This document shows positions 7,724 through 63,329 of a stretch of 64,000 bases of DNA, piece after piece. Origin of the DNA: Chrysopilus asiliformis (Eukaryota > Arthropoda > Insecta > Diptera > Rhagionidae). Positions within the stretch are counted from its first letter, which is position 1. Each line of letters starts with the position of its first letter. Both the position numbers and the translations under genes were made by a program. The stretch lies in the NCBI GenBank assembly GCA_964034945.1, contig OZ035960.1, positions 106,549,933 to 106,613,932 on the forward strand, given 5' to 3'. A model generated the notes under the pieces. That model did not search any database. It worked only from the letters and a program-made list of their open reading frames with translations, and was not told the DNA's origin.

Positions 7724-8711
7724 GGGTAAGTCACGTATAGATGCCCCACTAGGATAGATGCCTCACTGTTAAAAACTCGTACTTAACGAAACAAAACGGA
7801 ACATGTCATATCCTACATATCAAGTGTTTGCTCAATGAAACTTCAGTGCGTTGTTAAAATTCGCGAGAGTCGGGCGTGTTGCGGGATAATTGGCCATTTT
7901 TGTTTTCGAACAAGGGAAAACTCCAAAAACTTATTTTGAGCTGCACAAAAACTCTTGGAACTTTTGCTTAAAGAAGTATATATATATTTTTTTATTTTTT
8001 ATGTGTCAAATGGAGTGTTTAGTGTTTGCGAAAAAAAAATTTTTTTTCTTTTTATCCACATTTAATTTATTAAATAATTGGGGCATCTATCCGGTATGAA
8101 AAGGACAGACGCCTTCTTTTTTAAAGGGATAGTTGACCTTAGGGGCAAATTAACTCTAGGTAATAATATATACCTATTTGCTTTCCCACATTCATTGAAA
8201 ATACTTATTTATTATAGGTAAACATCCTATCCTTGGATTCGAAATTGAAAAACGGCTCGTGCGTCATATTCAGAAATTAGAGGCCGTTCGATTTCCTCCC
8301 GGAAGATACTGAATTTTGTTATTTTTTTCTTTATTATTTAATTAAATTTTTTTATATTGCAGTATGTGTATATTGGATAGACATATATGCATGTAAATGA
8401 ATTAAAATGCATAATAAAATTTTGTTATAACTTAATAAAATGTTTTTTTTTCCTCAAAGGCATCTATCCCACATGCACATTTGTCATGTTGGGCGTCCAC
8501 CCCATAGGTTGGGCATCTATCCCAAAAAGTAGAGACTAACAAAAACATTTTTATCACAGTAAAAGAAAAACATAATGTAAGTTTTTTTCGGCTGAAATTG
8601 TAGATAAGTGTACAGACTAATATTTAAAAATAAAAAAAAAATCGAAAATGTCTTTCTTCATTGTGAAATATAGCAAAGTCAAAATGTGGGGCATCTATAC
8701 GTGAGTTACCC
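7724..8711. mobile_element. TA-flanked MITE with GGGCATCTATCC repeats
   Basis: The inverted ends share GGGTAA(G/C)TCACGTATAGA and continue to GATGCCCCAC, with TA on both sides (7722-7723, 8712-8713). The motif GGGCATCTATCC or its complement recurs near 7733, 7752, 8080, 8459 and 8511 as well as in the right end. There is no transposase frame. It has the same layout as the element at 3144-4069 but unrelated sequence. A Tc1/mariner-type target site suggests that group. Confidence 0.75.
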
Positions 8712-15200: not shown

Positions 15201-15395
15201 TGCGTTCGATTTGATCTTTTCTTGGCGGAAAAATTACGAAAATCGAGAAACTCTTATCAATTAATCTCGATTTCGAGTTATCATGGGAGTAGTTAGACTG
15301 TTTCCCCGGAGTATCGCTAGTTTTTAGTAAGATTTGACCGTGTGTGACCAGCAAAACAATTTCAGTAGCAAACTTCTTCGGACGAGAGAGAAAAA
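12263..15395. other. Gene-free stretch upstream of the VWC gene
   Basis: At 12480-12860 there is an island of higher GC with overlapping frames of up to 121 codons on both strands and a GTTGTTGTTGTTGCACC run, which I cannot assign. At 13360-13660 there are two LINE-tail-like pieces with ATCGGTTYGGTGG. The last 300 bases probably hold the promoter and 5' leader of the gene starting at 15396. Confidence 0.35.
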
Positions 15396-18300
15396 ATGGC
15401 AGAAAAATTGGGTGAATTTCTTGTGTGTGTTTTGTTGGGCCTAATTGGATACGCAGACGGTAAGATATGGCCTTAAATTATAATTTGTAGCGTAAAAAAT
15501 ACATTTTCAAGTTTGTTTTCGCTTCCAATCGACTGATTTTCATCCTTTTGCAAAATTTCAATGCAGATGTGATTGCAGCTGGTTCCAGTTTTCTGTCCGA
15601 GTGCAGGGACTTCAATGGGAGGACTTACGAAAATGGGATGCACTACTTGCCAGGTCCAGATGTTTGCAAAATCTGCATTTGTGATAATGGGAGTCCGAAG
15701 GGATGCAAAGTGGTGCTCTGCACTCCGCCCAACGACTGTAAATCTTTCCAGGTGGGGAACTCGTGCTGCGAATACATTTGCTTGGATGACACCTTCGCTA
15801 GCAGCGCAGACCGAAGCACCGACTTTGGTATTTGACTGGTGGCCAGTGGCATAACTGCCACTTTGTCGCTGTCGCTGCTGTTCTTTTTGGTAAATCGGCT
15901 GAGGCAGAGGAAAATTAGAGTTAGGGAGAATCGACAGAACAACGAGGATCAGAGGAGCATCGGGAGTATTGGGTAAGTGTAATTGAAATGGCAAACATTA
16001 GATTAAAGGGCGGTAGATGGTGGTTAGAGCCCTATTGTGCTAGGACCATCGTAAGAAATCTTTGATGAGGGGAGAACTTACGAGAAATCAAATGTCTTTT
16101 GAACCTCCACTTCTTTAGTGTTAGTTCGATAGGATTTTCGAAAGTCCCTCTAATAGGCCACAAAGTTTGTCAAGAATCTGAGGACTTGTGAGCAGGATTG
16201 AGATTTTTGTTGAGGCCTTTTTGTGCTTTTCTTGATAAATACATTCAATCAGTCTATCATAGATCGTGTTCCCTCTACTACCCGCTAGAATTTATCAGTT
16301 ATTTTTTTTCTTGCTATTTGTAAACTGTCGTGACATTAATATCGAGGAAATAGCTTCCAATCTTTATCGTACACTTAATTGTAATTGTACTTAATTGCTC
16401 GAAATGTTTCTGCAATCAGACTTTCCACTTTTAGCTTCAGTCTTAACTGCACAAATTCGTCCTTGGCCCCGTCAAATTGAAGTTTCAACAATTCATATCT
16501 GCTACTGTTACACCTTAAGTTGTACGGTTACACCTAAAATTATAAAAACGGTCGACCCACTAAATAGTTAAAGTTTTACATGGATTGCAAACCAAAATGT
16601 TTATTTACTATAAATTTTCTTCCACGGAAGGAGGTTTAGAAGGGTTACTCAACCTTTAAAAAATGTCTCAATTCATTAAATGACCTTAAATTTTTCAGGT
16701 ACATTGGAGGAAATATGGGATACATGGGTGGTGGCTCAATCGGCATCGAATACCCCTACGAAGGCAACAGCAATCACTATCAGCTATGGAAGCCCCCAAA
16801 TGGATATTTTCCGCGTGGCGAAGCGCCACCGCCATACGAAGAAGCCGTGGCTTTAGCTCAAGCCGAGGCCATCAACACTCAATGCACCGTCAGGTAAGAA
16901 AATTTACAAAATTTCGCTACAAATAGCCGTATTTATGAATAAAATCTAGTAAATGTTTCGACTCTCATATAAATTTAGTACTAAAATGCGAGTAAAAGCA
17001 TTTGCTAAATTTTATTTACTCAAACCAATGCAGTATTTTTAAAAAATCGTGTAAATTTTTGACTTTATTTTAATAGTGTCGCAACAACAACTCATCGGAC
17101 ATTGCCAGTCACAATAAATCCATCTGAAAGTATTATAAACGATCCACAATCGAATATCACAACAAGTACTACGAATCTAATCAACATAAATATCAATAGT
17201 GCTGGAAATATTACGGCATTAGCAACCGGAGAAAATCATGCATCGCCATATAGGTAATTTCAAAACTGTGTACTGGTCCCACATAGAGACGATTTAAAAT
17301 TCTTGATTAATATTGCATGATTAATAATCGCAAATTATTTCTATGAAAATATTTAAAAAAAATTTCCTTTCACACATTAAAGTTGCGGCACACCATCATC
17401 AAATCAGCCGCGCTCCACCCAAACTCACTCAAACTGTTCGTCCTCCTCGTCGAGTAGCATAGGAGAATCATCGAATTTTTCCCGAAACAACACGAGCTCG
17501 GTTTGCATTCAATCGACTCAGCCGATCGCATTGCTATCTCAGAACAGCAACATTCAAATGTCATGCAATCAACAAATGTACACCACGTCCCAGCATCAAG
17601 CGATGGCCCAGCAGGTGAACAACGCAATTCCCCTGGTCGAGTGCACCTACCGAAACTGCACTCTAAACACGCAAAGCGCTAACATCAATCGATTATCAAA
17701 GGACTCCCACGTTGGTATTCAACAGTGCAACGTGGGCAATTATCCTCCGAATATGTTGACCAGCGGAAGCGGCAATTGCGGCATGGAGAACGAGATGAAC
17801 GCGATGAACGAAAACCAAAGAGAAATGAATAGAAATTCAATTCTACCACCGCCACTCTTCGATGAGGGTGGAGAAATGCGTCGCGAGGTAAATGGCACGG
17901 AGATAATGAAAACTCCGTCATCTTCGCGTCGCTATCATCGTACGATACCGCGTCATTTCACTGCTGTCGATCCATTGATATCAAATATGGATATGTCAGC
18001 GACCGATAATCAAAAATCTGCCAATCAGGCGAATAGCAATCCGTCTGCCATCAGTTCCGAGCACGCATTGATCGCCGCCTCGTCATCGTCCACATCAGCG
18101 TCGTCGTCGTCAACGTCATCATCGAATAAGAAACCAATGTGCCAATGTCCAATACAGCATGTCCCAATGTCATACATGGGCTCGAATCATTTCACAGCAT
18201 CACACAATACCAACAATGTATTCCTCTCGTCACTATCGACAAAGCTAACCGGTCAAAAGTCGAATTTGGTATCCAAATCGACATCGTTTTCAGCGTCATC

Positions 18301-20163
18301 CGGCAAAATTCAGACGATCTCCTCCAAGCATAATCTACCGCCGAATGTCAGCCATGGCGATGGTATTTCAATTGTGAAATCTGACCAACATTCGAATAGT
18401 ATTAGTAGTGGAACACTGCGACGATCTTCCAATCATCATCAGTCGAGCTCTTCGTCGTACGGCAGCCATCATAGTAACCATAATAAAATCGCAACCATAT
18501 CAAAACATGTCGTCGAATTGCGACACGATGCCCATCCCACCGCCAGCGTAACCGCTGCCACAGCCACTGGCAATCAGAGTCACGTGCATTCGATTTTAAA
18601 GACTCCCAATCTGAGAGAGAAGACCCACTCGAGCCACGCAAATACCGTTGGCGGTTCACACAATTCCCACCTCATGCTGAAGTCATCGGCAGCCGGAAAT
18701 GACGGTTTCAATCCGCCATTCCCGATTCAATTTATCGATGGCATGTCGAAAGCGACTACGAATGCGTTGGTAGCCGATAATTCGGGCGAGAATCCCGCCC
18801 TACCGCCGAAAATGTACAAAACCAGTCACAGTCTGAAGCATCAACAGCAGCACAGCCACCATCAGCAGCAGCAGCAGTCGCACCAGCAGCAACAACAGCA
18901 GAATCACGGCTCGAATCCGATATTTGTTTCGAAAATCCATACAATATCAAAGCCAATCGATGCCCAACCGATACCGCCTCGAACGTCTTCTAGCCATCGC
19001 GGTGGTAACACTTGTGGTCCTGGCTATCTCGGCCACCAACATCAGGCGCAGACGGCCGCCGGTCAGTCACAATCGCAGCATCATTTCTCCATAAATACGT
19101 ACACAAAGTCACTGCCACGCAAGGAGGAAAAGATCGTCGCACACTCCTTGACACTGCCGTCGTCCGGTCATCTGAGCTCCGAGAAATCACAGAGTCTGGG
19201 CAAAATCAACACCAGCACGTATTACCCAATCCAGAATGGACACGCAACGTATACGCTGCCGAAACAGGCTCACGGCAAGGTTTCTCTGAACAGCACAATT
19301 GCGAGTGTCGTCAGCAAAGTACCATCGGTGATCAGCATTCCCTCACCGTCGGTCTGCGAGGTCAACAACATACACGCATCAATGAATTCACCTGCTATGC
19401 AGCCAACACTATCATCGACAACAAACACGAATAGCTCTAGTCAACAGTATTTCAGTTCAAGTAGCAATAATAGCAAATCTGGCCACGGTAATCACAATAA
19501 CAACAGCATGTCGAATGTCATCTCCACACCCATAACCAAATCATCTTCAACGCTCTCGGCTAGTAGTGGATGTGGCACTATCGCCGCTCCGTCGCATTCC
19601 AATGAATCCAGCAATGCTGCCATAAAATCAACAACGCTGCCAAAAACGAAAAACTCGAATTCAAGTGCCGCTTATGCGGCAGCAGCCCAATCGTCCCAAT
19701 CGACGGGGGTTGCGAGCGGCACTTTGACACTGCCGAGCTCCAGCAGCAAGGCCGATGAGAAGCCGCTACCCGTTTGTACAACGTCGAAGAATTGCTCCAA
19801 TCCCAAGGAGCATTTCTTGCCGAATGACACGAGTTTGGATGATGATTATTTAAGTGAGTGTGAAAATTGTAAAACTGCGCATAGTTCACGGTATTATCTG
19901 GAGGAGGAAATCGAGGAGGCACCACAGGAGACTATGACTTTGCAGAGGAAAATGGATGACAAAGAAGAGGAGCCACCGTATTATCGGACTTCTTTGACGT
20001 TACCAACGAATACTAAGAAAAATTCGTAAGTAGAAATTGTGTTTGTTTGTAATACGCCCCGATTCTGATATAAATATTTTCCAGAACAATGAAAAACAAT
20101 AGGGAAACATGGTTCTCGTCTATCCCCGCCAGTTCATCGTCAGACGAAGAAGCGAATGAATGA
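15396..20163 (+). CDS. VWC-domain type I membrane protein with long Ser/Gln-rich tail; in-frame TGA
   Basis: Six exons join in one frame: 15396-15459, 15567-15972, 16699-16893, 17077-17253, 17383-20025, 20085-20163 (1187 codons before the final TGA). Residues 1-22 form a signal peptide. Residues 34-93 hold ten Cys in the order of a von Willebrand factor type C domain. A hydrophobic segment at 112-130 is followed by an Arg/Lys-rich stop-transfer. A PPPY motif lies at 200-203 and PPYY near the C-terminus; these could bind WW-domain ubiquitin ligases. The tail is Ser/Asn/Gln/His-rich with a polyQ block and repeated LTLP/TLP motifs. Codon 111 (15833-15835) is TGA, so strict translation yields 110 secreted residues. 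The layout is reminiscent of DGCR2/IDD-like proteins, but I am not certain of the orthology. Readthrough, an assembly error or a null allele could each explain the stop. Confidence 0.85.
15833..15862 (+). promoter_or_regulatory. Candidate stop-codon readthrough element
   Basis: The in-frame TGA (15833-15835) is followed by CTG. A perfect 7-bp hairpin, AGTGGCA-TAAC-TGCCACT, occupies 15845-15862, starting nine bases after the stop. TGA followed by C, with a downstream stem, is the usual make-up of leaky stops in insects. The frame before and after is the same exon and continues through every later splice junction. Confidence 0.5.
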
Positions 20164-20898
20164 GATTTAAGTAACCTTCTCTAAGGAAATCTATTTCTTT
20201 TTGAGAACTTCCCAAAAAATCACTAATATTAATATTATTAGTAGACAGTCAAAAGAAATTAAATAAAATACAAAATACTGAACCAAAAAAAAAAATCTCA
20301 AAGATATTAACCAATCAAAAAAAATGAAATGAAAACAAAATTATGATAGGAAATCTAAGAAAATTAATTTAAATTCACATAAAAGCAAAACCAAAAAAAA
20401 AAAGAAATGTGCAAAAAAACCAAACAAAATACACATGAAAATTTATGCTAATTGATATTAGATAAAAACAATTTAAGTATGTATTAACCACCAGTTGAAC
20501 AACATTTAATATTTATATGTTACGCGTTCACAAAATGTTTATTCATACAATTAAGTAATGAAAAAAAAGAAAACAGTAACAAATTTTTTATTAGTCTTAA
20601 TAAATTGTAGGATTTTAAGTAGGACGAAAAAGTTCAAAGAAGAAAATCGCAACGTCCCACGATATCGGATTCGTGGTGGGTTTTGTTCAAGAGGCAGGCA
20701 TTTCAAAAACTCTTTTTGGTTAAGTTTTCCATTAAAATAAGTTGTATATAAATTAGGCATTTCTTTTTTTTCTATTTTTTGTAATAAGTTATTAGTTTTT
20801 TAAGGCATTTTTATGTTTTTGTTTTTAAATAACAAAGTTTTATCAATTGTAAAAAATTGTGCAAGAGTTTCTTAAAGTTTTAACAAATTTGGGCCTTA
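20164..20898 (+). other. 3' untranslated region of the VWC gene (probable)
   Basis: AT-rich sequence follows the terminal TGA. AATAAA at 20262-20267 is the first candidate polyadenylation signal; AATAAA-like sequences recur further down. No other gene is seen before the MITE at 20899. Confidence 0.45.
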
Positions 20899-21267
20899 CC
20901 CCTGGGGCCCAATGAACGCAACGCTGTGAGCAACATTTCATTTCAGCGGCAGAGCCCATTGGCATCTCGTGAAGTAGTACAAATGACATAATACAAAGTT
21001 TTTTGATGATTTTGAAGCGATCATTTGCTTTGTTGGTCTTTATCTTTGTGATTTGTATGTTATGGGAATCACTAAAAATAACGACATTTCCCTAACCTCA
21101 CTTTATGAACTGTCAACGCAGAATTGCTGCGGCAAAGTTAGAAGTATGCAAACTTGCGTTGTAGGTGCGTTCTCTGCATTCACTGTGCTCACTTCAAATG
21201 ATTTCTATGGAACAAACTTGTAAGTGACAGTTTGTGCGTTCGCGTTGCGTTCATTGGGTTCCAGGGG
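20899..21267. mobile_element. 369-bp MITE with TTA target (Harbinger-like)
   Basis: The inverted ends read CCCCTGG followed two bases later by CCCAATGAACGCAACGC. TTA flanks both sides (20896-20898 and 21268-21270). The 3-bp TWA duplication points to PIF/Harbinger. There is no coding frame. Confidence 0.85.
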
Positions 21268-22402
21268 TTAGCATGTGCATCTTCTTAAAGGCCTGTGTAC
21301 ACGGTAGAGAAAATAGGCGACTGCGCTGAAAAAAAAATCTCCTTTACCAAACCCATTTACAAGAAACGGGACTTCTATGAGAATTTCTCTCATCCAAAGT
21401 TACACGAGAGAAAATTTCTGTAAAACTCTAGATAAGACTCTACCAAGTGTTCACATGATTGATGATATTTTTTATAGTTTCCAAAAAAAAACAAGTATTT
21501 GCGTTCGGTTGTACCTAAAAAAAAAGTTGTGGGCTTGTGTTTCCAATTCTACTCATCGTAAAGACATGCGATAAGTTGCATTACGTTTCCTGTAAAAATA
21601 TGTGTGACCTTTTGAGGATTTCCCCCCTCGGGGGTTGTGGGGAAGAGGGAAACGAGAAAACGCTATTAAAAAAGAGCTGGTGGACCGGTTTGCTTCAAAT
21701 TTTTCGAATTTTCGGTATTTATTAATGTTAGGGACTCGAATTTAAACAAAAATAGTTGAGAAAAACGAAAAATTGCTATAAAATAAACACCGGCAGATCA
21801 ATTTGCTTCGAAGATTTTACTATAAGATAATTGTCGCAGCAGTTGTGACCTTGCTATGTCAAGTATAGAGCCAAAAAAGCTACCGTAGCAGTCGTATCTT
21901 TTGTTCTCAAAAATCACAAAAAATTGTAAAGCTTTAGAAGAATTGAAAAGACTAAAAAGCTCCTAAAAAATGTGAAAATAAAAACAAATTGTTTCAAAAA
22001 TCCTCTGAAAAGTATGAAATAACTCTTTATTCATACTCCAACCATTCATGTCGTGTTTGATTTTGAAGCCATAGCACCCAAAAATAGATGTGAACATGAT
22101 AAAGAGTTTGTTCAACAAGTCTCTGGCCTACGAACTTTCAAAGTCAAATCGAGGAGTTTGATATCTGACAGGCTCTCTCGTCCCAGCCATTTCAATTCCA
22201 AATCGGGAAGTTTGATATCGTAGATAACAGATACGACATAAATGGCTGGAGTATGAAAAACGAAGGCGTTAACCATGAAAATTGCACCCAAATGACAATA
22301 AAAGTTGTACAATCAGACTTACAAATGGCTACTACATATACAAATTCCTATTTATTGGTGAAAACTGCATTAAAAACCTTTTTTTAACGCATTTTCACCA
22401 AT

Positions 22403-27668: not shown

Positions 27669-29491
27669 CTAAGGCTTAGATGAATCTGTCGATTCAATTT
27701 CTTCATCTTCACAATTGGAAAAGGTTGACTCCGGCTCGGCTTCCATTTGAGAGGTTTCACCTTCAGTTTCGTCGTCGACTTCGAAAATTTCAGCCTTGCT
27801 ACTTTTACTTCTATTTTCGCTAGCGAAAAAAATTAAAGCCTTCATAACGGCTGCCGGTGGAACATTGTACACCGGATGTGTCGGTAGAACTTCATTTTTA
27901 GATTCTCCAAGTATAAACGGATCCATTGTGTTGGCGCTGTGCTGAGATATCGCAATTCCACTGAGTGTGTAGCACGTGTGGTAAACATCGGGTGCTCTAG
28001 AATGATAAAAAAACAATAGTCAGTTTTTATTAATGACACCTGTGTAATCTTTTTAACAAAATTAGAGTGCAAAAACGTGCAATTTAAAATTCAATGTTTA
28101 GTATTGTTGAGAAATTTACATACTTTCCTGGTTTATCCAGCAGTCCACCAGCAGGCCATTGGCAACAAAGAAGGACATACTCCTGCAGAGCAACTCTATC
28201 AAATAACGGTACTTTTATTGCATCCATTGACGGTTCTAAAGAAAGACAACAGAACTGAAATAAATTTATTTTAGAATCAATGGTTAAATGTTACCAGTTT
28301 TTGAAATGATTGCTTGCAGAATTGGAAAAATCGCCCCCACCCAAAAAGAGTAGCATCCATCAACCAATTTATTTGTTCTACCTTTAAATAAAAACGTTTT
28401 GCGGTTAAACAATTTAATATTTACATCAAAAATCTAAAATTATAGGCTAGTGTAAGTTTTTTGATAGAGATCTACCTTGAAATCCCCCTTCGTACCTCAT
28501 CTGCCGACCCAATGACCAACGCTACAAGAAATAATTGATAAAAATAGAATAAATGTTGGCTTTCAAAGAATCTCTAGGACTAAAAATTACCAACAAGTTG
28601 TCTAGATCACAACATTCCGCCTTGCCAAGCATCACCAAAGACGCGAGGCCACAAAATGTGTATCCGCCATGAGCCTCTAAATCTGGTGCACCACCAAATC
28701 CCCCTTCATACGTCTGACAACTGCATATCCACTCAGCAGTGTTGGCGAACAGTTCCTCCTCGTCCTTCTGCGAGAAATTAGTCAACTTCGCACAGGATAA
28801 AGCACAGTAGGCCCCTCGGACATCGATCTCACCGTCAACATGAAGCCTGAAGGCTCCGTTATCCTCTCGCACTGACCACAGAAACTTCTTCAAGGAATCT
28901 CGGTCAATAGCTCGCATTGCCTTGTCCGATCCGATTATGCAAAGACTGTTGACAGCCGCATAGGTCGGCGCTAAATGGGGTTTTTGCTGAGGTCCGCCAC
29001 CGAAGCCACCGTCGCGATCCCGGCACTTCTCTAGGAAGTTTATTGTATTGTCCAGAACGTCAGCACCGAAGTGGAAGTTCAGCAGATGCGCAGAGTTTAG
29101 GATCCAGTAAATCAGCCACGGTCTGCTGCTGTCCAAACACTCGTAGGAAGACGAAAGGCCACGCAGGGATTTCTCCAAGTATTTTATGTGCTGTTCTCTG
29201 GAAGAGTTGGGAACTTCGCTGCTGGATGAGGAGGCTTTTGGGATAAATTTAGATTCGTTACCTGTGGATATGAGGCAGAGAGGCATCCAGACATTTTAGC
29301 TGTTCGAACCGGTCGAAGCACTTCTCAACAATCTGCTCCGTCGTCATCTGCAGAGGATAAGTGGAACTTTATTGAATTTCCCTGATAAAACTTATCAAAT
29401 TTACTTGTTCTCTGGAAGTAACTGTCCATATCTTCTCATCGTTGAACTTTTCTCGCTTTAAATTGGTAAAATCCCGGAAAATCGGCTCCAT
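27669..29491 (-). CDS. FNTB: Protein farnesyltransferase subunit beta
   Basis: Catalytic beta subunit that attaches farnesyl to CaaX-box proteins such as Ras, Rheb and lamins, working as a heterodimer with the alpha subunit in the cytosol. Seven exons join in frame: 29491-29405, 29347-29262, 29197-28591, 28521-28476, 28381-28295, 28235-28124, 27996-27669 (450 aa; family about 420-440). Prenyltransferase repeats are clear: DGGFGGGPQQKPHLAPTYAA, EGGFGGAPDLEAHGGYTFCG and EGGFQG. Zinc ligands are Asp283 and Cys285 (LVDGCYSFW) and His348 (VYHTCY). The last ~50 residues are acidic, as in other insect and vertebrate homologues. The start at 29491 is the first ATG and gives an N-terminus compatible with the family. 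The gene is divergent from Max with 938 bp between start codons. Confidence 0.96.
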
Positions 29492-37854: not shown

Positions 37855-39393
37855 TCACGATATGATGCAGCTGCTCTTTTCTTGCGTGTTGCTATTTTCG
37901 GTTTCGATTAAAACAAGCAAATTGTGGAATATGTCGGCAACGGACTGGAAAGTCATAATAATATTTTTTTTTTAAATCTCGGTTTGTTACTAAATTTTAT
38001 TTCAATATGAAAAAGAAAAAAAAATATTGGAAAAGTAAAAAAAAAATATTGGAAAAGTACAAGCATTCTACCAACTGAAAGTTAGTGGTTGTTTTTTGTC
38101 AAAGTTGTTAGCAAATAGAAAAAATACACTAAAAATTTAAGAAGGAAAGAAATTTTCACCTCAAGTCGAGGAGAAACCTCAAATTTTAGTGCAGTTTTCG
38201 GTCAAATCATTGCCTAATTTCGTTGTTTTCGCCCATGTACAAACAATTCTTGGTATTTTACTTTCATGTCTATAAAATACGCCAGGTTAAAGCACCCCCT
38301 AGATGCACAATATTTTTGATGAATAATGTTGAACGCATCCCTAAATAGCTCAATATTTTTATTCAATAACTCAATATCCCAAAACACTTTAAAAAAATTT
38401 TCTTTCCACTTCGTTTGAAGTCATAATGCTCGGTTTTCAAAATTCGGGCTAGATCTGACACAATATTGCGGATTTTTTTTTTAAATAAAAATTGTACAAA
38501 TAAGATCGACCACTGATTTTTCCATATTTAGAAATTTTGAAATTTGTGTAATAAAAAAAACTCTTCGTTACCTCATTTTGTTTGGCTGATGTCTCTAAGA
38601 ACGTCGCTTTCCAAGATTCGGCTAGTTTTCGTCCTTCTTCAGTAGAAACAGCGCGTTCCTGATGTAAATCTGTCTTATTTCCTACTAGAACTACAGGTAC
38701 ACTACAACGAATCACACATTTTCCAAGATCACTTCCAGATAAAGCAATTTTGCAAACGCAATTGAACTTACAGTGCTTTCCCCATAACATCTAACAGTTT
38801 CTCGTAGATAATTTGGATGACCTCAAAGGATTTTTGGCTAGTTATCGAATAGACAAGAACGTAGCCATGGAAGTCCATACTATACTGAGCCGGAAATATG
38901 CTATACTCGTCCTGCCCCGCGGTGTCCACCAGCCTGACCTCATATTCTTGGGAATTGACCCTCGTTATCTTCGTAAATGCTATCAAAGAAATTGGTGTAC
39001 TGGGGGGGGGGAATATTTCAGTCGGGAAAATCTACTCCCCCGACAATGAGCAAAAAGTGAAAAAATTTTCTTTTGTTGCTCACCGTCATGGCATGTTTTA
39101 AAGGCGTGTTATAAACAATGGGAATGGGAATTGAAGAAACATGAAAATTATTTTCCTACTCACTATTCTCGATAGTTGGGTCGTACGAATCGACGAATTG
39201 TCCTTCGACAAATTGAATACTCAGCGATGATTTACCTGAAAAATTTTAATGCACTTGAACTTGAGCTACGTTTAATAAAAACGGCGTAATAAAAGCCAGT
39301 GAAAAAATGATTGCGATGTTGCGAAAACAGAATTTCCCACTTACCTACTGACCGATAACCCATCATGGCAATGTTGCGCTCTTTCGGGGACAT
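37855..39393 (-). CDS. Rheb: Rheb small GTPase
   Basis: Activator of TORC1 on lysosomal/endomembranes, controlled by TSC2. Five exons join in frame: 39393-39345, 39235-39164, 38979-38772, 38701-38572, 37944-37855 (182 aa, the usual length). The P-loop reads GYRSVGKSS (residues 12-20); it has the Rheb-type Arg14-Ser15 where Ras has Gly-Gly. Effector loop is YDPTIEN (34-40), switch [10 protein letters not shown] (59-66), guanine-specificity motifs NKTD (118-121) and SAK (148-150). The last exon encodes [10 protein letters not shown] and ends in CIIS, a CaaX box with Ser at the last position, so a farnesyl rather than geranylgeranyl acceptor. That exon lies 630 bp away from exon 4. The start is the ATG giving [20 protein letters not shown]. 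Confidence 0.97.
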
Positions 39394-49129: not shown

Positions 49130-49272
49130 TATCTGATATAATTTTATTATACTCAAAATTCTAATTGAAGCCATTTAATTTATAAGGAATACAGTGGAAC
49201 CAAACACTCCTTTTTCAGTGATCAAGAAAACCTTTATTTGCCGAATGGAATTTTTTTTTTTTTGAGTGTATA

Positions 49273-50565
49273 ACACATGGATCAATAAGTCCCGAGACTA
49301 ACCCAGAGATGACGCTCGTAGTAAACCAGTAACCACGTCTTTCTAGAGTACTAACCTTTGCTTGAAACGTGTCAAAATTTTAAGTCGATCGGACCAGAAA
49401 CAGCTGAGTTATCGAGGTTGGAGTAAAGTCGTTTTGTAGTTTGTTTAAAAAATGGAAAAAACCGAGTTTCGTGTTCTGATAAAACATTGTTTTTTAATGG
49501 GTAAAAACACCGTGCAAGCGAAACAATGGATTGAAAAATGTTACCCGGACTCTTGTCCATCAAAAGCAACGATTTGTCGGTGGTTTGCCGAGTTTAAACG
49601 TGGTCGTACCGACACAAATGACGCGGAACGCTCGGGTAGACCTGTGGAAGCCGTTACACCGGAAAATGTGTGTGAAGTGACAAAAATTATAATGAAAGAT
49701 CGTAAAGTGAAGCTCCGTGAGATTGCTGAGATAACACAGATATCATATGGAAGTGCATTTACTATCCTTCATGAAAAATTGAGCATGAAAAAGGTTTTTT
49801 CCAAGTGGGTGCCGCGATTGCTTTCGATGGAACAAAAACAGCAACGAGTCGATGATTCAGAAAGCTGTTTATCGCTATTTACTCGCAATAAAAAAGATTT
49901 CTTGCGTCGTTACGTGTCCATGGACGAAACATGGATACATCACTACACTCCAGAGTCGAAGCGGCAGTCATCTGAGTGGCGCACAGCTGGCGAAAGCCGT
50001 CCGAAGCGTCCGAAAACGCAGCAGTCAGCTGGCAAAGTCATGGCGTCAGTTTTTTGGGATACGCATGGCGTGATTTTCATTGACTACCTCGAAAAAGGTA
50101 AATCGATCAACAGTGATTATTATATTGACTTGCTGGTGCCTTTGAAGGAGGAAATCGCAAAAAAACGACCGCACATGCAGAGAAAAAAAATCCTTTTTCA
50201 CCAAGACAATGCACCCTGCCACAAGTCGATGAAAACAATGGCAAAATTGAACGAATTGGGCTTTCATCTGCTTCCCCACCCCCCATACTCGCCAGATTTA
50301 GCCCCCAGTGACTACTGGCTCTTTGCTGATCTTAAAAAAATGCTCCAGGGAAAAAGATTTGGCTCAAATGAGGAGGTCATCGCTGAAACTGAAGCTTATT
50401 TTGAAGCGAAAGATAATTTTTTTTATAAACATGGTATTGAAAAATTGGAAAAGCGTTGGAACGATTGTATCACCCTAAAAGGTGATTATATTGATGAATA
50501 AAAAAAAAATTGGCAAAAAAAATGTTGTTTTCATTGTTAGTCTCGGGACTTATTGATCCATGTGT
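49273..50565 (+). mobile_element. Complete mariner element, irritans group
   Basis: Length 1293 bp. Both ends are perfect 30-bp inverted repeats starting ACACATGGATCAATAAGTCC, with TA duplicated at 49271-49272 and 50566-50567. It encodes one uninterrupted transposase. Nothing appears broken, so it may be recently active. Confidence 0.97.
49452..50501 (+). CDS. Mariner transposase (349 aa)
   Basis: Cut-and-paste DNA transposase that acts on its own 30-bp inverted ends at TA dinucleotides. The catalytic triad is intact: Asp158 (VSMDETW), Asp252 (HQDNAPCH) and Asp287 (YSPDLAPSDYW), with exactly 34 residues between the last two (DD34D). Two helix-turn-helix regions are at about 1-110, and WVPRLL stands in the linker. 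Length equals intact irritans-group proteins such as Himar1, to which long stretches (SAGKVMASVFWD, FIDYLEKGK, FHQDNAPCHKS) are nearly identical. The start at 49452 is the first ATG in frame and matches the family N-terminus (MEKTEFRVLIKHCF). Such elements are known for horizontal spread between insects. Confidence 0.97.
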   Translation: MEKTEFRVLIKHCFLMGKNTVQAKQWIEKCYPDSCPSKATICRWFAEFKRGRTDTNDAERSGRPVEAVTPENVCEVTKIIMKDRKVKLREIAEITQISYGSAFTILHEKLSMKKVFSKWVPRLLSMEQKQQRVDDSESCLSLFTRNKKDFLRRYVSMDETWIHHYTPESKRQSSEWRTAGESRPKRPKTQQSAGKVMASVFWDTHGVIFIDYLEKGKSINSDYYIDLLVPLKEEIAKKRPHMQRKKILFHQDNAPCHKSMKTMAKLNELGFHLLPHPPYSPDLAPSDYWLFADLKKMLQGKRFGSNEEVIAETEAYFEAKDNFFYKHGIEKLEKRWNDCITLKGDYIDE

Positions 50566-50567
50566 TA

Positions 50568-61871: not shown

Positions 61872-63329
61872 TTATTTATCATCAATGAATTCTCTATCAT
61901 CTTCAACGAACTGCTTGCTGAGGTCTTCTGGTACTTCAATCTGCCTAATATTATCGATGCCAATCTCTTCTTCTTTTCTGAAAAACGAAAATAGACTGAT
62001 TTTAAAGTTTACTCAATTTTTTGGGTTTTGGAACAATACGAGAATTTTGAATTGTATAAAAATTCTCCCTTTCTCTCCTACTTTGTTTTTTCAACTTGTT
62101 TACCTTATCAAGATATCCACAATTTTTTCACACACCAAAAGCGCTTCGCGGTCACCACCTTCAGTTGCCTCCCATTTATGGTATTCACGCAAAATTTCGT
62201 AGGTTCCCTTCGCCCTCAAAAATTCACGATAGGCCTTCGTGGCGCACAATTGCAGTAAGGACTCCAACAGCATACGCCTTAAATCAGGATCCTCGACACG
62301 TTTCTTAGGCTCTCGGCCGATATTCAAGTACTGAAAATTGTAAAAATGACACAAAATCAAAGAATTTTCTTGAGTATAATTGATTACCTGCAGTTCAACT
62401 GGAAACTTTTCATTCTCTTCCTCAGTGAATTCTTCAGGACCAGCCAACGGATATAGCAAGCAGTATAAAGCATCATCGTGATTATTAATAATAATGTTAT
62501 GATAAGCTGGATCGAAACAAATATTTTTCAGCATTCCGATAGCACCACCCTGCCTGATAACGCTATCTTTGAAATAAACGAAGTGCGATTGTCTTTGGAA
62601 AAGATTTCGTTTATCGCAAAAGATCTGTCGACCCTTCGCCGTTTGGGTCAAGTTGCAGAAAAATGGACCTAAATAGGTTTATGAATTTATGTTGAATATC
62701 ACAAATCACTCCATGTTACCTAAATAATGAAGTTTCGCATGTTTGTTATCAGAGACCAAGCAATAGGTCTTCACTAGCCGTAGTATCAAGTTATTGTCCA
62801 CCTCCAATTCGTCGAGAATTGGATCTACTAATGCTTCTGAACGAGTCAAATTACACAAAACCATCGTCCATGGATCTGCCAGTTCTGTTTTTGATATCGC
62901 AATAGCGTCCACTGCCAAAGGAATTATACTCTAAAAAAGTATTTTGTTCGATAAGCGGAATTATCAAATTTAACAAAAAAAAAATCGTTAACAATACCGG
63001 AGTGCAAAGTTTATTCTGTTCATAGACTTTTTGGGCCCCCTCTTCTTCTGCTGTTAAATTAATCAATGATAAAACTGCATCCTTGGCAATTGTTTTGTTT
63101 TGATCAGTTGTTAATTTTATTAGCGTCTTAATTATCTCCTTGGATTTGAGTAGCATCATTTTGCCATCGGGACCTCCAGTCAGGCCTTCAGTTTTTTATA
63201 CAATTTAAATTGGTTTTTGTAATTAATATTTATGGAAAAAATACCTAACACATGACTCAAGGAAACAGCTTTTAGATCCAGACGTTGATCAATTCGCAAA
63301 AATTGCAGTAATTCATTTACGCTTTCCAT
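61872..63329 (-). CDS. HGH1: HGH1 homologue, eEF2 folding co-chaperone
   Basis: Armadillo-type repeat protein that, in yeast, works with the TRiC/CCT chaperonin to fold elongation factor 2. Six exons join in frame: 63329-63245, 63185-62998, 62930-62720, 62668-62388, 62330-62104, 61977-61872 (365 aa, close to the usual 360-390). Recognisable blocks: GLTGGPDGKMM, SLINLTAEEEGAQK, PWTMVLCNLTR, FFCNLTQTAKGRQIFCD, FDPAYHNII, LLYPLAGPEEFTEEENEKFP, RRMLLESLLQLCATKAYREF, GTYEILREYHKWE and a Glu/Asp-rich end (KEEEIGIDNIRQIEVPEDLS). The start at 63329 is the first ATG and fits the family. The stop codon overlaps an AATAAA, so the 3' UTR may be very short. Confidence 0.93.

What the first reader, a model, noticed from the sequence alone, without database searches (positions are those of the whole stretch)
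15833..15862. In-frame TGA with downstream hairpin: candidate programmed readthrough that converts a secreted VWC protein into a membrane protein
Exon 2 reads through a complete ten-cysteine VWC domain, then meets TGA at codon 111, then continues in the same frame into a 19-residue membrane segment and basic stop-transfer. Five further junction-checked exon pieces stay open for more than 1000 codons. A decayed gene would not keep such a frame. The stop is TGA followed by C, and a perfect 7-bp stem with a 4-base loop begins nine bases later, both features associated with efficient readthrough in insects. The stop sits exactly between the extracellular domain and the membrane segment, so termination gives a soluble form and readthrough gives an anchored one with PPxY-bearing tail.
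Basis: partly seen in the sequence, partly recalled or inferred. Interest (0 to 1): 0.88.

Follow-up and report, generated by a model that had tools for sequence, protein, structure and literature searches.

The report
Fly receptor gene needing stop-codon readthrough
A fly gene for a cell-surface protein carries a stop signal between its outer domain and its membrane anchor, and related flies appear to share it, so ribosomes probably sometimes ignore the stop to make the full receptor and otherwise make only a small secreted piece.

Summary
Six GT-AG exons (15396-20163, + strand) give a 1,187-codon frame broken only by TGA-C at codon 111 (15833-15835), between a ten-cysteine VWC-like domain and a membrane helix with PPxY-bearing tail. 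A perfect 7-bp stem starts 9 nt after the TGA. Of 82 relatives examined, 21 (14 named: beetles, thrips, wasps, a bee) run through this point with a sense codon (Arg in 20, Pro in 1). All 47 named dipteran proteins fail to: 41 begin downstream and 6 hold the VWC but omit the residues around the stop, at five different junctions. No GT-AG intron within the exon removes the TGA in frame while keeping all ten cysteines and the helix. Best explanation: a Diptera-wide programmed readthrough switching a secreted VWC peptide to a DGCR2/IDD-like single-pass receptor. Insect readthrough is a known kind; this is an unusual member, with the stop upstream of four introns and about 91% of the protein beyond it. 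Not shown: the stop codon in any other fly's DNA, translation past it, or conservation of the stem. I could not see whether the Drosophila orthologue (probably CG42404) is already flagged.

The parts
15396..15459 (+). Exon 1: ATG, signal peptide (MAEKLGEFLVCVLLGLIGYAD...)
   Evidence: ATG with an in-frame stop TAG upstream at 15366; GT donor; hydrophobic windows within codons 6-27. No signal-peptide predictor was run
15567..15972 (+). Exon 2: VWC domain, TGA, membrane helix, basic stop-transfer
   Evidence: GT-AG borders; tblastn of P0002, P0003 and P0010 N-termini runs along it at 53-64% identity
15602..15781 (+). Ten-cysteine VWC-like domain (codons 34-93)
   Evidence: Cysteines; profile search of solved structures ranks collagen II VWC first (5nir E 0.0025, 1u5m E 0.0042); Foldseek top hit 5nir, prob 0.96 but E 0.035, model pLDDT 68.5; Pfam gives no VWC hit for the window protein
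15833..15835 (+). In-frame TGA (codon 111), followed by C; candidate readthrough stop
   Evidence: aligned to Arg in 20 and Pro in 1 of 21 continuous relatives
15845..15862 (+). Perfect 7-bp stem, 4-nt loop, 9 nt after the stop; part of a longer predicted hairpin (about 15834-15873)
15836..15892 (+). Membrane segment, codons 112-130, then NRLRQRK
   Evidence: 23 of 29 residues identical to P0026 over codons 113-141
16699..16893 (+). Exon 3, with PPPY motif (codon 200); first Met after the TGA is codon 163
17077..17253 (+). Exon 4
17383..20025 (+). Exon 5, long low-complexity tail with conserved islands, PPYY (codon 1145)
20085..20163 (+). Exon 6 coding part to the final TGA (20161-20163)

Best explanation
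The gene is the fly orthologue of an insect VWC single-pass protein that some beetle and thrips records call DGCR2/IDD. In or before early Diptera its juxtamembrane Arg codon (probably CGA) became TGA. Ribosomes that stop at the TGA release a signal-peptide-bearing VWC protein of 110 codons, which would be secreted. A fraction read through, helped by the UGA-C context and by the hairpin starting about 9 nt downstream, which would sit at the mRNA entrance while the stop is in the A site. A near-cognate tRNA inserts a residue (Arg, Trp or Cys are usual at UGA; general knowledge), the membrane helix follows at once, and the full receptor with two PPxY motifs is made. Shown: the frame, the domains, the TGA, the stem, the sense residue in non-dipteran relatives, and that dipteran protein models break at this point. 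Inferred: that the break in other flies is the same stop, that readthrough happens, its efficiency, the role of the stem, and a function for the short form.
For: Continuous 1,187-codon frame with one internal TGA. Conserved protein on both sides in the same frame. Of 82 proteins examined: 47 of 47 named dipteran ones break at or start after this point, 14 of 14 named non-dipteran ones are continuous, and of 21 unnamed ones 7 are continuous and 14 start after it (orders assigned by me from the species names). Six dipteran models that hold the VWC leave out the stop at five different junctions, as gene finders dodging a stop would. The window gene falls inside Diptera beside Hermetia. Stem statistics. 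The peptide at the stem permits all 7 pairs in the window and in the five dipteran or dipteran-like sequences where it is visible, against 3 of 21 continuous relatives, all three braconid wasps. UGAC is a leaky context and 3' structures typically begin about 8 nt after the stop (PMC3542737, passages).
Against: No translation data. No other fly's DNA was seen, so the stop, its context and the stem are directly known in one genome only. The protein searches see only certain lengths (about 650-2,080 aa, 60-192 aa), and one search scored a capped candidate list, so continuous dipteran proteins outside these could exist. CTG after TGA is not the CTA/CGG of type II signals (PMC3542737, passages). 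The stem's excess depends on the length chosen and two other places in the CDS score as well or better. No annotated short VWC-only protein was found, which may only mean the short form was never annotated.
Confidence: 0.85

Rival explanations
1. Two cistrons: the upstream ORF makes the VWC peptide and an independent start downstream makes the tail, as the database models imply.
For: 41 of 47 named dipteran models start downstream; four of them (tephritids, P0077-P0080) do not align to codons 1-221 at all.
Against: No shared start: among the other 37 the first aligned column ranges from 116 to 173. In the window the first Met after the stop is codon 163, yet codons 113-141, which such a start would not translate, are conserved as helix plus stop-transfer (23 of 29 identical to P0026). 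A tail-only product would lack helix and ectodomain.
Confidence: 0.05
2. Alternative splicing or a tiny intron removes the TGA.
For: Glossina, Culicoides, Anopheles funestus and D. busckii models contain such junctions. In the window one AT-AC pair of 51 nt keeps both domains; one GT-AG pair (15763-15846, 84 nt) keeps the helix but cuts the last three cysteines, and one (15828-15920, 93 nt) keeps the VWC but deletes the helix.
Against: The junctions differ between genera and five of the six models lose all or nearly all of the helix. In the window no GT-AG or GC-AG pair removes the TGA in frame while keeping ten Cys and the helix. tblastn with four relatives' N-termini found no second VWC or helix exon in the window at significant E.
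Confidence: 0.04
3. RNA editing (A-to-I) turns UGA into UGG (Trp).
For: A hairpin lies at the site; editing is named as an alternative explanation in PMC4528330 (section 23).
Against: The stem is short and largely downstream; editing would give Trp, while relatives have Arg or Pro. Not directly tested.
Confidence: 0.04
4. Sequencing error or a recent null allele in this individual.
For: One genome only was read, and the search of the window's own genome did not complete.
Against: A break at the same point in 47 of 47 named dipteran proteins from many families.
Confidence: 0.01
5. UGA encodes selenocysteine.
For: The codon is UGA.
Against: No Rfam match of any kind, SECIS families included, in 15300-22000 at E up to 1; the 21 continuous relatives have Arg or Pro, not Cys.
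Confidence: 0.01

Closest known systems
[quoted passage not shown] 2016, PMC5100048; FlyBase cases in PMC4528330)
   Same: Protein-coding conservation beyond a stop, most often UGA; predicted 3' RNA structure in 9-10% of candidates (33 and 34); extensions can exceed 1,000 aa.
   Different: [quoted passage not shown] Here the stop is in exon 2 of 6, the contiguous second ORF is 46 codons and ends in an intron, about 91% of the protein lies beyond the stop, and databases annotate the part beyond it.
headcase (hdc) readthrough in Drosophila
   Same: Stop plus downstream RNA structure that triggers readthrough (as stated in PMC5100048, section 9).
   Different: hdc uses another stop codon and does not change membrane topology (recalled); here topology would change from secreted to membrane.
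Type II viral readthrough (alphavirus replicase and others)
   Same: UGA-C and an extended stem-loop starting about 8 nt 3' (PMC3542737, passages).
   Different: Next codon here is CUG, not CGG or CUA; host gene. The viral structures were not compared here.
DGCR2/IDD (vertebrate) and insect 'integral membrane protein DGCR2/IDD'
   Same: Signal peptide, VWC, one membrane helix, intracellular tail (DGCR2 layout from a figure legend, PMC10362570, passages). Records P0001 and P0018 bear the name; cut-off names of P0003, P0006 and P0017 point the same way.
   Different: DGCR2 also has LDL and C-type lectin regions, absent here; the human sequence was not compared. A 2015 table lists no fly homologue of DGCR2 (PMC4487986, passage).

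Membership tests
Programmed stop-codon readthrough | In-frame stop followed by an open frame under protein-coding selection | tested here: met
   (protein conservation; no codon-substitution test possible without other DNA)
Programmed stop-codon readthrough | Stop conserved in relatives | tested here: inconclusive
   47 of 47 named dipteran proteins break or start after it, but only protein records were seen, not the codon
Programmed stop-codon readthrough | No splice, second-start, Sec or editing explanation | tested here: inconclusive
   Splice, second start and Sec tested and disfavoured; editing not tested
Programmed stop-codon readthrough | Leaky context and/or 3' RNA structure | tested here: met
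   UGA-C; stem 9 nt downstream, 1 of 2,000 recodings as stable for 15 codons; 2 of 585 windows elsewhere in the CDS as extreme
Programmed stop-codon readthrough | Translation past the stop seen in cells | not testable with these tools
   No ribosome or proteomic data
Insect VWC single-pass protein annotated as DGCR2/IDD | VWC, helix and PPxY tail aligned to named members | tested here: met
   46-58% identity in the N-terminal 221 residues to 14 of 14 named beetle, thrips and hymenopteran members; alignment
DGCR2/IDD (vertebrate) | LDL and C-type lectin regions | tested here: not met
   Pfam of the N-terminal 221 residues, which hold the whole ectodomain, shows neither. Hence DGCR2-like, not filed as DGCR2
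VWC domain | Ten-cysteine pattern and similarity to a solved VWC | tested here: met
   Pfam weak or absent (VWC2L_1st below cut-off in 2 of 6 relatives)
Selenoprotein | SECIS element | tested here: not met
   limited to 15300-22000

The most novel reading that the evidence does not exclude
A Diptera-wide recoding switch, as old as the crown of the order, in which a juxtamembrane Arg codon of an insect DGCR2-like receptor became UGA and nearby membrane-helix residues (S-G...A-T) changed so that their codons can form a readthrough hairpin. Every fly would then make a set ratio of secreted VWC ligand or decoy to anchored PPxY receptor from one mRNA, and the gene has been mis-annotated from a downstream Met in most flies.
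Probability: 0.6. Interest if true: 0.72.

Novelty: new member of a known kind. Interest (0 to 1): 0.64.

Why it matters
If true, the topology of a receptor in a whole insect order is decided at the ribosome. Losing the readthrough would abolish the receptor while leaving the secreted VWC, an unusually clean way to test what readthrough is for. It also points to a blind spot: searches that start from annotated stops and look for C-terminal extensions tend to miss stops in internal exons whose downstream part is annotated as the gene. The pattern used here (outgroups continuous, one clade starting after the same column) could be used to find more.

Tried and rejected
A search with the first 110 codons had one candidate and no match at E <= 0.001. 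Scans of viral and genome contigs for stray dipteran DNA found none, so stop and stem conservation could not be checked at DNA level. Pfam does not recognise the VWC; a profile search against solved structures does. The AlphaFold model is only fair (pLDDT 68.5) and no Foldseek hit reaches E <= 0.001. Rfam gave nothing. Literature: CG42404 occurs in one held paper, seen in the search listing only, hence not in the held main texts of PMC5100048, PMC3840789 or PMC4528330; their supplementary lists were not open to me and Jungreis 2011 is not held, so I cannot say the Drosophila case is unreported. Other searches for prior reports, seen as listings. What I saw of papers: PMC5100048 abstract, section 9, part 1 of section 3 and passages; PMC3840789 passages; PMC4528330 passages and section 23; PMC3542737 passages; PMC4487986 one passage; PMC10362570 passages. 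No lepidopteran name was among the hits; not followed up. The peptide-stem test was first run on 14 of 21 continuous relatives with hand-listed segments (P0028 left out for a residue not visible) and repeated on 21 of 21, which raised the non-dipteran count allowing 7 pairs from 2 to 3. The tree used 24 of the 82 proteins, chosen by me, plus the window.

Full report
What is there. On the + strand, six exons with canonical borders (15396-15459, 15567-15972, 16699-16893, 17077-17253, 17383-20025, 20085-20163) give one frame of 1,187 codons, from an ATG with an in-frame stop upstream to a TGA at 20161. It is interrupted once, by TGA at 15833-15835, codon 111. Before it lie a signal-like hydrophobic start and a ten-cysteine domain; right after it a 19-residue hydrophobic helix, a basic stop-transfer and a long tail with PPPY and PPYY.

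Is it a VWC domain? Pfam does not call it in the window protein and gives only a sub-threshold VWC2L_1st match in 2 of 6 relatives. A profile of 16 sequences against solved structures ranks the two collagen II VWC chains first (5nir E 0.0025, 1u5m E 0.0042). The structure search of a fair model also ranks 5nir first (probability 0.96, E 0.035; no match at E <= 0.001). UniRef names three relatives 'VWFC domain-containing'. I treat it as a divergent VWC.

Relatives. A search scoring residues 1-240 of the spliced protein, X at the stop, gave 75 proteins (only lengths of about 650-2,080 aa can be found). A second search with a Drosophila member, capped at 7,978 candidates and listed at E <= 1e-60, added seven (P0076-P0082). 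Over these 82 (orders assigned by me from species names) all 14 named non-dipteran proteins (8 beetle, 4 hymenopteran, 2 thrips) run without a break across the point, as do 7 of 21 unnamed ones. The residue at codon 111 is Arg in 20 of these 21 and Pro in one (Agrilus). None of the 47 named dipteran proteins does so: 41 start after it (37 with first aligned column 116-173; four tephritid models do not align to codons 1-221 at all), and six contain the VWC but omit the residues around the stop (Culicoides sonorensis, three Glossina, Anopheles funestus, D. busckii CG42404) at five different junctions; five of the six also lose all or nearly all of the helix. This is what annotation software would produce if every fly had a stop there. 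It is indirect: I saw no other fly's DNA. A tree of the window and 24 chosen relatives puts the window gene among the 18 dipteran rows (100/100) next to Hermetia illucens (93/95, below the tool's own mark for firm support; the tool warns of long branches and uneven composition).

Rivals. A downstream start fails because starts are not shared and the helix before them is conserved. Splicing within the exon: no GT-AG or GC-AG pair removes the TGA in frame and keeps ten cysteines and the helix; one AT-AC pair of 51 nt formally does, one GT-AG pair keeps the helix at the cost of three cysteines, and one keeps the VWC at the cost of the helix. Sec is disfavoured by the lack of any Rfam match in 15300-22000 and of Cys in relatives. 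Editing was not tested. Decay or error does not explain the order-wide pattern.

Signals. The stop is UGA-C. A perfect 7-bp stem lies 9 nt downstream, the only one of its kind in the CDS, inside a longer predicted hairpin. Given the peptide, such a stem is rare among synonymous codings (12 of 4,608), and the folding energy of TGA plus 15 codons is reached by 1 of 2,000 recodings, less extreme at other lengths (46, 10, 261 of 2,000 for 10, 20, 33 codons). Two other places in the same CDS are as extreme (2 of 585 windows), by raw energy the site ranks 31 of 1,167, and a dinucleotide shuffle gives 10 of 200, so by itself the stem is suggestive, not proof. The peptide at the stem permits all seven pairs in the window and in five dipteran or dipteran-like sequences (P0004, P0026, P0030, P0040, P0041; three of them unnamed), against 3 of 21 continuous relatives, all braconid wasps. 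A review states that UGAC is leaky and that readthrough structures typically begin about 8 nt after the stop (PMC3542737, passages).

Mechanism. Termination would release a secreted VWC peptide; readthrough would place the helix at once and yield the anchored receptor with PPxY motifs (WW-domain ligands, general knowledge). The TGA may have arisen from CGA by one transition; insertion of Arg would restore the ancestral residue. A stop that one substitution could remove, apparently kept across the flies examined, suggests that both products are useful; this is inference. Since four introns lie downstream, mRNAs that only terminate at the TGA may be prone to decay, also inference.

What is known. 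Hundreds of fly and mosquito stops are read through (PMC5100048, abstract and parts; PMC4528330, section 23; PMC3840789, passages). FlyBase notes that with very few exceptions annotated cases are C-terminal extensions and that the 2011 search was biased to them. The mosquito study generally explained second ORFs with exon breaks as splice variants when there was no coding signal before the break. Ribosome profiling reported eight extensions with a predicted membrane domain (Table 2); CG42404 is not among them. That the D. melanogaster orthologue is CG42404 rests on the name of the D. busckii protein P0076. The gene is therefore a new member, in an unusual layout, of a known kind; whether CG42404 is already flagged I could not see.

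Noticed in passing
window 49271-50567 (+): Intact-looking mariner element: 32-bp perfect terminal inverted repeats, flanking TA, 350-aa ORF 49449-50501 (Transposase_1 2.7e-23, HTH_48 2.2e-05).
   Followed up: partly
window 27669-29295 (-): Prenyltransferase beta-type exons (Prenyltrans 1.4e-62 for 28525-29292; 1.2e-05, just under the cut-off, for 27672-28016).
   Followed up: no
window 38449-38790 (-): Ras-family GTPase exon (Ras 1.1e-14).
   Followed up: no
window 62100-62678 (-): HGH1-like exon (DUF383 2.2e-26, DUF384 2.9e-18; the name HGH1 is recalled).
   Followed up: no
P0026-P0080 (dipteran and dipteran-like relatives): Dipteran orthologues bear misleading automatic names (kinase yakA, AF4/FMR2 lilli, mucin, histidine kinase) and 41 of 47 named models lack the VWC ectodomain, probably because they start after the stop.
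   Followed up: yes
window codons around 1043 and 1083 (exon 5): Two other stretches of the CDS fold as strongly relative to synonymous recodings as the post-stop hairpin (z -3.75 and -3.67).
   Followed up: no
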